Shown here one piece after another: positions 2,594 through 4,310 of a stretch of DNA of 64,000 nt. A program made the position numbers and the translations under genes. The stretch is taken from the NCBI GenBank assembly GCA_951813255.1, contig OX638353.1:2725501-2789500 (forward strand), in the 5' to 3' direction. The notes beneath the pieces were generated by a model. That model was not told the DNA's origin and made no database searches. It saw nothing but the letters and a program-made list of their open reading frames with translations. Every line of letters starts with the position of its first letter. Positions within the stretch are counted from its first letter, which is position 1. The stretch is from an uncultured Dehalococcoidia bacterium (GTDB lineage: Bacteria; Chloroflexota; Dehalococcoidia; Lucifugimonadales; JAAXIE01).

Positions 2594-3580
2594 ATGGAAG
2601 GGCAGGTGCCCCAATACGACGTGCTCATAGTCGGACAAGGAGCAGCGGGCTTCAGTGCTGCGCTATATGCAGCCCGCTACCAGATGAAGGCCGTAGTCTT
2701 CGGCGATAAGTTCGGTGGCGAAACGGCCATAGGCGGCGCCATCGAGAACTACCCCGGTTTTCCGTCCATTGACGGGTTCGACCTGATGCTCAAGATGCGG
2801 GAGCAGGTGGAGGGGTACGGTGTGGAGATCATTGACGAGAAGGTCGACGCTCTCACTCGCCTGCCGGGCTGCTTCCAAGCTGAGACTGAGGAAGCTTCGT
2901 ACCGGGGCAAGTCGGTCGTTCTGGCCGTCGGCAGAGAGCGCCGCAAGCTGGGCCTGCCCATGGAAGAGGAGTGGACCGGCAGAGGGGTCTCCTACTGCTC
3001 TGTTTGTGACGCCCCTCTATACCGAGGCAAGACGGCAGGCGTGGTTGGTGGGGGCAACGCCGCGGTGGAAGGGGCCATCCTGCTCGCCCGCTACGCCGAA
3101 AAAGTGTACTTGGTCTATCGTGGGGACCGGCTGACTAGGCCCGAACCCATAGCCCTGCGCATGCTTGAAGATACACCCAACGTGGAGGTGCTCCTCAGCA
3201 CCCAAGTCACTGCTCTCCAGGGGGAAACCGGGCTGGACGCAGTGTCGCTGGACCGGCCACTCAATGGCTCACACGAACTGACATTGGACGGCCTGTTCGT
3301 GGAGATCGGGGCTGATCCCCGGAGTAAGTTGGGCCAGGACGTGGGCGTCGCCCTGAATGATCAGGGCGAGATAGTGGTGGACAAGCTTATGCGCACCAGC
3401 GTGGAGGGCGTATTCGCTGCCGGAGACCTGACTGACGGGTCGGGCAACTTAAAGCAGACCGTAACTGCAGCAGCCCAAGGGGCGCTGGCAGCGACCTCAG
3501 CTTACGAGCTGGTAAGCACGCATCCCTGCCGCTGCCAGTGCCACGCTATGGGGTATCCGTTAGAGGCGGCAGTAGTCTAG
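2594..3580 (+). CDS. thioredoxin-reductase-like FAD/NAD(P) oxidoreductase
   Basis: This is a 328-residue protein of the TrxB family size. The N-terminal FAD motif is GQGAAG at residues 14-19. The redox pair is C135-S-V-C138, followed by DAP. The NAD(P)H site is GVVGGGNAAVEGA just after it. The second FAD motif is VEGVFAAGDLTDG near residue 275. The start ATG follows AAGGAG by a good distance. It would pass electrons from NAD(P)H through FAD to a thiol partner. The C-terminus carries an extra Cys-rich tail (HPCRCQC) not usual for E. coli-type TrxB. The gene converges on the DsbA/FrnE-like selenoprotein candidate, and both stop codons share one CTAG. That arrangement makes a redox partnership plausible but not proven. 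Confidence 0.88.
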   Translation: MEGQVPQYDVLIVGQGAAGFSAALYAARYQMKAVVFGDKFGGETAIGGAIENYPGFPSIDGFDLMLKMREQVEGYGVEIIDEKVDALTRLPGCFQAETEEASYRGKSVVLAVGRERRKLGLPMEEEWTGRGVSYCSVCDAPLYRGKTAGVVGGGNAAVEGAILLARYAEKVYLVYRGDRLTRPEPIALRMLEDTPNVEVLLSTQVTALQGETGLDAVSLDRPLNGSHELTLDGLFVEIGADPRSKLGQDVGVALNDQGEIVVDKLMRTSVEGVFAAGDLTDGSGNLKQTVTAAAQGALAATSAYELVSTHPCRCQCHAMGYPLEAAVV

Positions 3581-4176
3581 GCAGAGGCCTTGCGGATGGC
3601 GGCCTGCAGGTCCTCCAAACTCACATCTCCCTTGAGGTATTCGCCGTTTACGATGTAAGTAGGGACTACGCCCACATCCTGCGCCTTGGCGTCGTCGTAA
3701 TCGGAGGTGACGTTGGGCAGGTAGTAGCCCGACTGTAGCCGGCCTTCAAGTTCGCCCCAATCCAAGCCGACCTCTTGGGAAACCTGTTGCAGTGTCGCCA
3801 TCTCACCCAGGTTGGCACCCGTCTCCCAATAGAGCTTGGCGGCAGCATGGTGGAACTCATTGTCCAAGCCCTTTTCCTTAGCATAGGCCGTCGCTTGGTG
3901 TGCCAGAGAGGTATTGGGGGCCACCGAGGGCCGCTTCATCACGAGGCCTACGCCACGGGCCCGTTCCTGCATGGCAGGCGCAAGATCCGTCTCGGTCTCG
4001 CCGTCGAACATGCGACGGGGGGCGCCTTCGGCGGGCTGATCGGGTCGCAGGAAGTAGGACTTCCTGTCTACGTTGAGAGGTATCTCCTCTCCAACCTTGT
4101 CGAGCCTAGCCAGGCCGACGTAGCAGAAGGGTCAAGTGTAGTCATGCCAGACTGTGACATCCACGGGTGTCGCCAT
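3577..4176 (-). CDS. DsbA/FrnE-like thiol oxidoreductase, candidate selenoprotein (in-frame TGA at codon 15)
   Basis: Read from the ATG at 4176, the frame gives 199 residues with one internal TGA at 4134-4132 (codon 15). The context is WHDYT-U-PFCYVGLARL, matching the family motif around CPWCYIG with U in place of the first catalytic Cys; the second Cys is residue 18. The ATG at 4176 has a strong Shine-Dalgarno (GGAGG, 8 bases upstream). The next in-frame ATG (codon 56, 4011) has none and would delete the active site. After the TGA the frame is uninterrupted, with family-like features: NVDRKSYFLRPDQP, a helical insert, and VGVVPTYIVNGEYLKGD carrying the cis-Pro loop. A hairpin follows the TGA. 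DsbA-like selenoproteins are known in marine metagenomes. An alternative is a nonsense mutation or base-call error restoring a Cys codon. No selA, selB, selC or selD lies in this window. Confidence 0.72.
4099..4119 (-). promoter_or_regulatory. candidate bacterial SECIS hairpin downstream of the UGA
   Basis: On the minus strand, nucleotides 13-33 after the TGA fold into an 8-bp stem with one bulged U on the 3' side and a GGCU tetraloop. The two paired blocks are GUCG with CGAC and GCCU with AGGC. A lower 5-bp helix, CUUCU (nucleotides 3-7) with AGAGG (42-46), can enclose it. Bacterial SECIS elements sit in the coding region close to the UGA, have a G in the first two loop positions, and often carry a bulged U; loop distance here is 21 nucleotides. 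In E. coli fdhF the bulged U is on the 5' side, so this is a variant form. Folding energy was not computed. Confidence 0.5.
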
Positions 4177-4310
4177 GTGCTTCCTCCAAGTCAGTGATGT
4201 ATGGCTCGTGGGCAATTCTAGCATACCTGCGCTGCATGAGCCTCGTTGACACCTTTCTGTTGACATATATGAGGTCTCGCCGATAGCATCCCCCCACCCT
4301 TGAGCGCAGC

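What the first reader, a model, noticed from the sequence alone, without database searches (positions are those of the whole stretch)
3577..4176. DsbA/FrnE-like gene with TGA in the position of the catalytic Cys: a probable selenoprotein
An ORF caller splits this gene and keeps only 144 residues without an active site. From the ATG at 4176, with its strong Shine-Dalgarno, codon 15 is TGA in DYT-TGA-PFCYVG. This is exactly where FrnE/DsbA relatives have the first Cys of CPWC. The frame is intact on both sides. Insertion of selenocysteine is the simplest reading and would give a U-x-x-C oxidoreductase. DsbA-like selenoproteins are known from marine metagenomes; a Sec form of this FrnE-like branch deserves a check.
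Basis: partly seen in the sequence, partly recalled or inferred. Interest (0 to 1): 0.85.

Follow-up and report, generated by a model that had tools for sequence, protein, structure and literature searches.

The report
Selenocysteine form of a FrnE/DsbA oxidoreductase
This bacterial gene very probably uses a stop codon (UGA) to insert selenium-containing selenocysteine into the active site of a thioredoxin-fold enzyme, but selenoproteins of this kind have been known since 2005; what is new is mainly how common the selenium version is in this bacterial group.

Summary
Window 4176-3577 (minus strand) is one gene of 199 codons with an in-frame TGA at codon 15, exactly where homologues have the first Cys of CPWC. 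In 149 homologues, 112 have TGA and 37 TGC/TGT in that column, with no other in-frame stop. The single-contig genome has tRNA-Sec(UCA), SelA, SelB and SelD (itself with a TGA). Across 393 genomes of the class, 106 of 109 genomes with the TGA form have selA or tRNA-Sec. Of 33 genomes with only the Cys form, 22 lack selA, and all 22 lack tRNA-Sec. A SECIS-type hairpin just after the UGA shows compensatory changes in TGA forms and none in Cys forms. TGA is a normal stop elsewhere, so this is recoding, not another genetic code. Sequence and a high-confidence model put the protein next to Deinococcus FrnE. It is a new member of the known 'DsbA-like, UxxC' selenoprotein family (Sargasso Sea, 2005; assigned there to COG2761). 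It is probably a cytoplasmic thiol:disulfide reductase/isomerase; substrate unknown. Less expected: Sec is the majority state here, with repeated Sec/Cys switches.

The parts
3577..4176 (-). Sec-containing FrnE/DsbA-like oxidoreductase gene, 199 codons + TAG (ATG 4176; one in-frame TGA)
   Evidence: PF01323 DSBA 91 bits vs cut-off 25.6; nearest solved structure FrnE of D. radiodurans
4132..4134 (-). TGA codon 15, read as selenocysteine; position of the first Cys of CPWC
   Evidence: 112 TGA / 27 TGC / 10 TGT in this column of 149 homologues
4123..4125 (-). codon 18 TGC, the resolving Cys of the U-P-F-C motif; the only Cys in the protein
   Evidence: Cys conserved in 147 of 149
4099..4119 (-). 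SECIS-type hairpin core, 13-33 nt after the UGA (GUCGGCCU-GGCU-AGGC-U-CGAC; apical loop GGCU at 4108-4111)
   Evidence: 45-nt fold -17.9 kcal/mol; covariation in the homologues' hairpin
4183..4187 (-). Shine-Dalgarno GGAGG, six bases before the ATG
   Evidence: sequence; GGGGAGG before the ATG also in homologue L053
3661..3663 (-). codon 172 Pro, in the position of the cis-Pro loop of the thioredoxin fold
   Evidence: Pro in 148 of 149 homologues; invariant in A1
2594..3580 (+). convergent neighbour: thioredoxin-reductase-like flavoprotein (TrxB-like, CSVC motif), overlapping the 3' end by 4 bp; possible but unproven redox partner
   Evidence: TIGR01292 297 bits, below its 343 cut-off; similar genes beside only two distant homologues

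Best explanation
The gene encodes a selenoprotein. When the ribosome reaches UGA codon 15, SelB and Sec-tRNA(UCA), guided by a hairpin immediately downstream in the coding sequence, insert selenocysteine instead of terminating. This gives a U-P-F-C active site at the start of helix 1 of a cytoplasmic FrnE-type (DsbA-fold) protein. Inferred, not shown: the selenolate attacks disulfides (or oxidised thiols) of substrate proteins, Cys18 resolves the mixed selenide-sulfide, and the enzyme is reduced again by a general thiol system such as thioredoxin/thioredoxin reductase, because it lacks the C-terminal CX4C that does this job in D. radiodurans FrnE. The Sec reading has strong computational support; the direction of the redox reaction and the substrate are inference (about 0.6 for a reductase/isomerase role in the cytoplasm).
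For: Own genome: tRNA-Sec 70.3 bits with anticodon TCA, selB 346 bits, selA 552 bits, selD 393 bits with its own in-frame TGA. Homologues: TGA 112, Cys 37, same column, no other in-frame stop. Machinery: 95 of 109 TGA-form genomes have selA against 11 of 33 Cys-only. Of the 14 without selA, 11 have a strong tRNA-Sec, whereas 0 of the 22 selA-less Cys-only genomes do. Hairpin: 772 paired cells against a shuffle mean of 679 (maximum 700) in TGA forms, 192 against 191 in Cys forms; folding stronger than synonymous shuffles, mean z -1.27 in TGA against -0.28 in Cys forms. TGA is also an ordinary stop, in 6 of 30 long window ORFs and at the ends of 39 TGA-form homologues. A second TGA paralogue is in the same genome. 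Fold: AlphaFold pLDDT 96.7; best PDB hits are FrnE, TM 0.80-0.84.
Against: No protein-level evidence. Three of the 109 TGA-form genomes show neither selA nor a strong tRNA-Sec; they are 72-90% complete fragmented assemblies. The hairpin of this particular gene has a bulge relative to the majority register. The gene neighbourhood is not conserved, so the partner reductase is a guess.
Confidence: 0.95

Rival explanations
1. The TGA is a sequencing error or a recent nonsense mutation; the gene is an ordinary Cys FrnE or a pseudogene whose 144-aa remnant is translated.
For: One-base changes from Cys to TGA are easy; an ORF caller keeps only the 144-aa part.
Against: 111 other homologues across many families of the class have the same TGA; constraint upstream of the TGA; hairpin covariation only in TGA forms; match with Sec machinery.
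Confidence: 0.01
2. The genome reads TGA as another amino acid (Trp or Gly, codes 4/25), so the codon is not Sec.
For: A TGA in frame is all that such a code needs.
Against: TGA ends 6 of 30 long ORFs in the window and 39 TGA-form homologues; homologues have Cys, never Trp or Gly, at this codon; tRNA-Sec, SelA and SelB are present.
Confidence: 0.01
3. Sec is inserted only in part: termination at UGA dominates, and a truncated peptide or lack of product acts as a selenium-dependent switch.
For: Low selenium limits Sec insertion in general (established knowledge); nothing here measures read-through efficiency.
Against: Nothing in the sequence speaks for a regulatory peptide; the stretch before the Sec codon varies in length between homologues and is conserved as part of the fold.
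Confidence: 0.03

Closest known systems
DsbA-like selenoprotein, form 1 (PF01323 / COG2761, UxxC; PMC1088965 2005, PMC13188914 2026)
   Same: Same Pfam domain, same U-x-x-C motif with Sec replacing the first active-site Cys, bacterial SECIS just downstream.
   Different: The named representatives (AACY01178397, NIP15863.1) could not be aligned here. The papers checked mention the family in Deltaproteobacteria, Clostridia, marine metagenomes and Asgard archaea; none of the passages found describes it as the majority form in Chloroflexota.
FrnE of Deinococcus radiodurans (DR_0659; 5cnw, 5cp1)
   Same: Closest solved structure by sequence (E 7e-18; profile 2.9e-47) and by fold (TM 0.80-0.84); same motif position; cytoplasmic.
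   Different: Sec for the first Cys, F for W in the motif, and no C-terminal CX4C; only one Cys in the whole protein. PMC8945050 notes that some true FrnE proteins also lack CX4C.
SCO1869 of Streptomyces coelicolor (3gl5), probable DsbA oxidoreductase
   Same: Same fold, TM 0.84.
   Different: Only 21% identical over the fold alignment; no selenocysteine reported in the entry title.
Rcas_1661 family thioredoxin-like (seleno)lipoprotein (NF041057, DsbG-like)
   Same: Sec-containing thioredoxin-like family; the model's name points to a Roseiflexus (Chloroflexota) founder, from memory.
   Different: Score 24.9 against a cut-off of 190; a lipoprotein family by name, whereas this protein has no signal peptide by inspection.

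Membership tests
Selenoproteins | In-frame UGA aligned with Cys in homologues, conserved on both sides | tested here: met
   112 TGA and 37 Cys of 149 in one column
Selenoproteins | Sec machinery in the same genome | tested here: met
   tRNA-Sec, selA, selB, selD
Selenoproteins | SECIS hairpin downstream of the UGA | tested here: met
   Hairpin with covariation in TGA forms only; computational, not a binding test
Selenoproteins | Selenium in the protein | not testable with these tools
   needs mass spectrometry or 75Se labelling
DsbA-like selenoprotein form 1 (PF01323, UxxC) | PF01323 domain above the gathering score | tested here: met
   91 bits against 25.6
DsbA-like selenoprotein form 1 (PF01323, UxxC) | UxxC with Sec in the first position | tested here: met
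   U-P-F-C
DsbA-like selenoprotein form 1 (PF01323, UxxC) | Same clade as the published representatives | not tested
   AACY01178397 and NIP15863.1 were not at hand in the collections used
FrnE subfamily of DsbA (cd03024) | Closest sequence and fold match to FrnE | tested here: met
   the cd03024 model itself was not run
FrnE subfamily of DsbA (cd03024) | Cytoplasmic (no signal peptide) | tested here: met
   N-terminus MATPVDVTVWHDY enters strand 1 at residue 5; by inspection, no signal-peptide program run
FrnE subfamily of DsbA (cd03024) | C-terminal CX4C (present in many, not all, members) | tested here: not met
   no Cys after residue 18; not a defining feature, since true FrnE proteins without it are described

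The most novel reading that the evidence does not exclude
In this phylum Sec, not Cys, is the ancestral state of this FrnE-like enzyme, and the Cys forms arose repeatedly by Sec-to-Cys replacement, often together with loss of the Sec machinery; the enzyme may be one of the genes that keeps the Sec trait alive in the lineage.
Probability: 0.5. Interest if true: 0.4.

Novelty: new member of a known kind. Interest (0 to 1): 0.27.

Why it matters
Standard gene calling cuts this gene, and probably most of its TGA-form homologues, to a fragment without an active site, so the enzyme is likely missing or mislabelled in annotations of uncultured Chloroflexota. With 112 TGA and 37 Cys homologues, at least 11 switches forced by well-supported branches, and a matching pattern of Sec machinery, the family is a good natural data set for how Sec and Cys replace each other. 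It also shows that the Sec trait in this group serves a soluble thiol redox enzyme, beside better-known selenoproteins such as SelD.

Tried and rejected
A conserved operon with the thioredoxin-reductase-like or MTHFR-like neighbour was sought and not found. NF041057 (Sec lipoprotein, DsbG-like) was rejected as far below cut-off. An alternative genetic code was rejected. Pseudogene or error was rejected. A scan for other TGA read-through genes in the window gave only frames that look antisense or trivial. One DNA alignment call failed for want of a second sequence and one region call exceeded the length limit; both were replaced. A first extraction of homologue frames ignored strand and was redone. 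The careful phylogeny did not finish; the quick tree was used.

Full report
WHAT IS THERE. On the minus strand, 4176-3577, one frame runs for 199 codons from an ATG preceded by GGAGG to a TAG, with one internal TGA at codon 15 (4134-4132): MATPVDVTVWHDYT-U-PFCYVG.... An ordinary ORF caller reports only 3577-4011, 144 aa.

THE PROTEIN. With Cys written for the TGA it scores 91 bits to PF01323 DSBA (cut-off 25.6). The nearest solved structures are FrnE of Deinococcus radiodurans by sequence (E 7e-18; profile 2.9e-47) and by fold (TM 0.80-0.84; model pLDDT 96.7, pTM 0.91). The TGA codon sits just before helix 1 (residues 16-29), where the nucleophilic Cys of the CXXC motif lies. Pro172, in the position of the cis-Pro, is kept in 148 of 149 homologues. 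The only Sec or Cys residues are Sec15 and Cys18, and there is no signal peptide by inspection.

HOMOLOGUES. A search of 393 genomes of the same class found 143 with a homologue. I read 147 of these matches (the own genome's two copies included) and added two named relatives, L053 (Dehalococcoidia bacterium UBA1141, 60% identical) and L054 (Chloroflexi bacterium SP22, 50%). In the alignment of these 149, codon 15 is TGA in 112, TGC in 27 and TGT in 10; no TGA form has a second in-frame TGA and no Cys form has any. The motif is UPWC in 95, UPFC in 13, UPYC in 3 and UHWC in 1. The stretch before the TGA is under protein constraint: against L053, 11 of 12 residues are identical and five of six base changes are in third positions. 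Homologues with one in-frame TGA also occur in other classes of the phylum (there the column was not checked one by one).

MACHINERY. The genome (one contig, 3.4 Mb) has tRNA-Sec with anticodon TCA (70.3 bits), selB, selA and selD with its own in-frame TGA. Over the class sample, 95 of 109 genomes with a TGA form have a strong selA, against 11 of 33 with only Cys forms (Fisher p 5e-9, not corrected for shared ancestry). Of the 14 TGA-form genomes without selA, 11 have a strong tRNA-Sec (67-82 bits); the other three are 72-90% complete fragmented assemblies. Of the 22 Cys-only genomes without selA, none has a tRNA-Sec at E 1e-11, and 12 of these are good-quality assemblies. So 106 of 109 TGA-form genomes show Sec machinery.

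SECIS. The 45 nt after the TGA of this gene fold at -17.9 kcal/mol, with a stem capped by a GGCU loop 20 nt after the UGA. In the homologues an 8-bp stem (nt 14-21 with 25-32 after the TGA) is paired in 772 cells for 109 distinct TGA forms against a shuffle mean of 679 and maximum of 700. The inner pairs switch between C-G, G-C, U-A and A-U. In 37 Cys forms the count is 192 against 191. Folding is stronger than synonymous recodings in TGA forms (mean z -1.27, 36 nt) and hardly so in Cys forms (-0.28). The Cys forms are a built-in control, since they share the protein but not the need for a SECIS. The shuffle does not correct for relatedness; the contrast with Cys forms is the stronger argument.

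ALTERNATIVES. TGA ends 6 of 30 long ORFs in the window and 39 of the TGA-form homologues themselves, so the code is standard. Error or decay is excluded by the shared column, the constraint and the hairpin.

EVOLUTION. In the quick tree the own gene groups with L053 and L054 (SH-aLRT 99). The second copy in the same genome (L023, also TGA) falls in another clade. The Sec/Cys label needs 17 changes, at least 11 across starred branches. Direction was not tested because there is no outgroup; the dominance of Sec and the joint loss with machinery make repeated Sec-to-Cys loss plausible.

MECHANISM. From the family (PMC8945050): D. radiodurans FrnE reduces insulin and, with NADPH and thioredoxin reductase, DTNB; its C-terminal CX4C helps regenerate the active site. 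The window protein lacks CX4C, as do some true FrnE proteins, so recycling by a general thiol system, direct or through thioredoxin, is the simplest inference. A thioredoxin-reductase-like gene lies tail to tail with it (2594-3580 +), but the arrangement is not conserved, so it is no more than a hint.

NOVELTY. Sec-containing DsbA-like proteins with UXXC were reported from the Sargasso Sea in 2005 and assigned to COG2761 (PMC1088965), appear with the counts 41 and 45 in a 2016 table (PMC5029168) and are listed as 'DsbA-like protein form 1, PF01323, UxxC' in 2026 (PMC13188914). COG2761 is, from memory, the FrnE group. The gene is therefore a new member of a known kind. Paper searches for SAR202, Dehalococcoidia, Chloroflexi and Chloroflexota with selenoprotein terms showed no title or abstract describing this family there, but the library is incomplete and those papers were not all read.

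Noticed in passing
G000:C1:493739-494284 (-), locus L023: A second Sec-containing FrnE/DsbA paralogue (DYI-U-PWCYIG, 37% identical) in the same genome.
   Followed up: yes
G000:C1:3386799-3387722 (-) and C1:15765-16688 (-), loci L017, L018: selD is present twice and each copy has one in-frame TGA, so SelD is itself probably a selenoprotein.
   Followed up: partly
G000 contig ends, L172 and L173: The two ends of the single contig are 92-96% identical over about 9 kb, suggesting an unclosed circular assembly with strain variation; this could explain the double selD and part of the 7.7% contamination estimate.
   Followed up: partly
window 2594-3580 +: Thioredoxin-reductase-like flavoprotein with a CSVC motif (usually CATC, from memory), scoring below the TrxR equivalog cut-off.
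   Followed up: partly
L160 (G028) and L165 (G090): Two Cys-form homologues have CPYS and CPWS, i.e. the second active-site Cys is lost; they branch together.
   Followed up: no
L147 (G242): One TGA-form homologue has UHWC instead of UPxC, the E. coli DsbA-like His in an otherwise Pro position.
   Followed up: no
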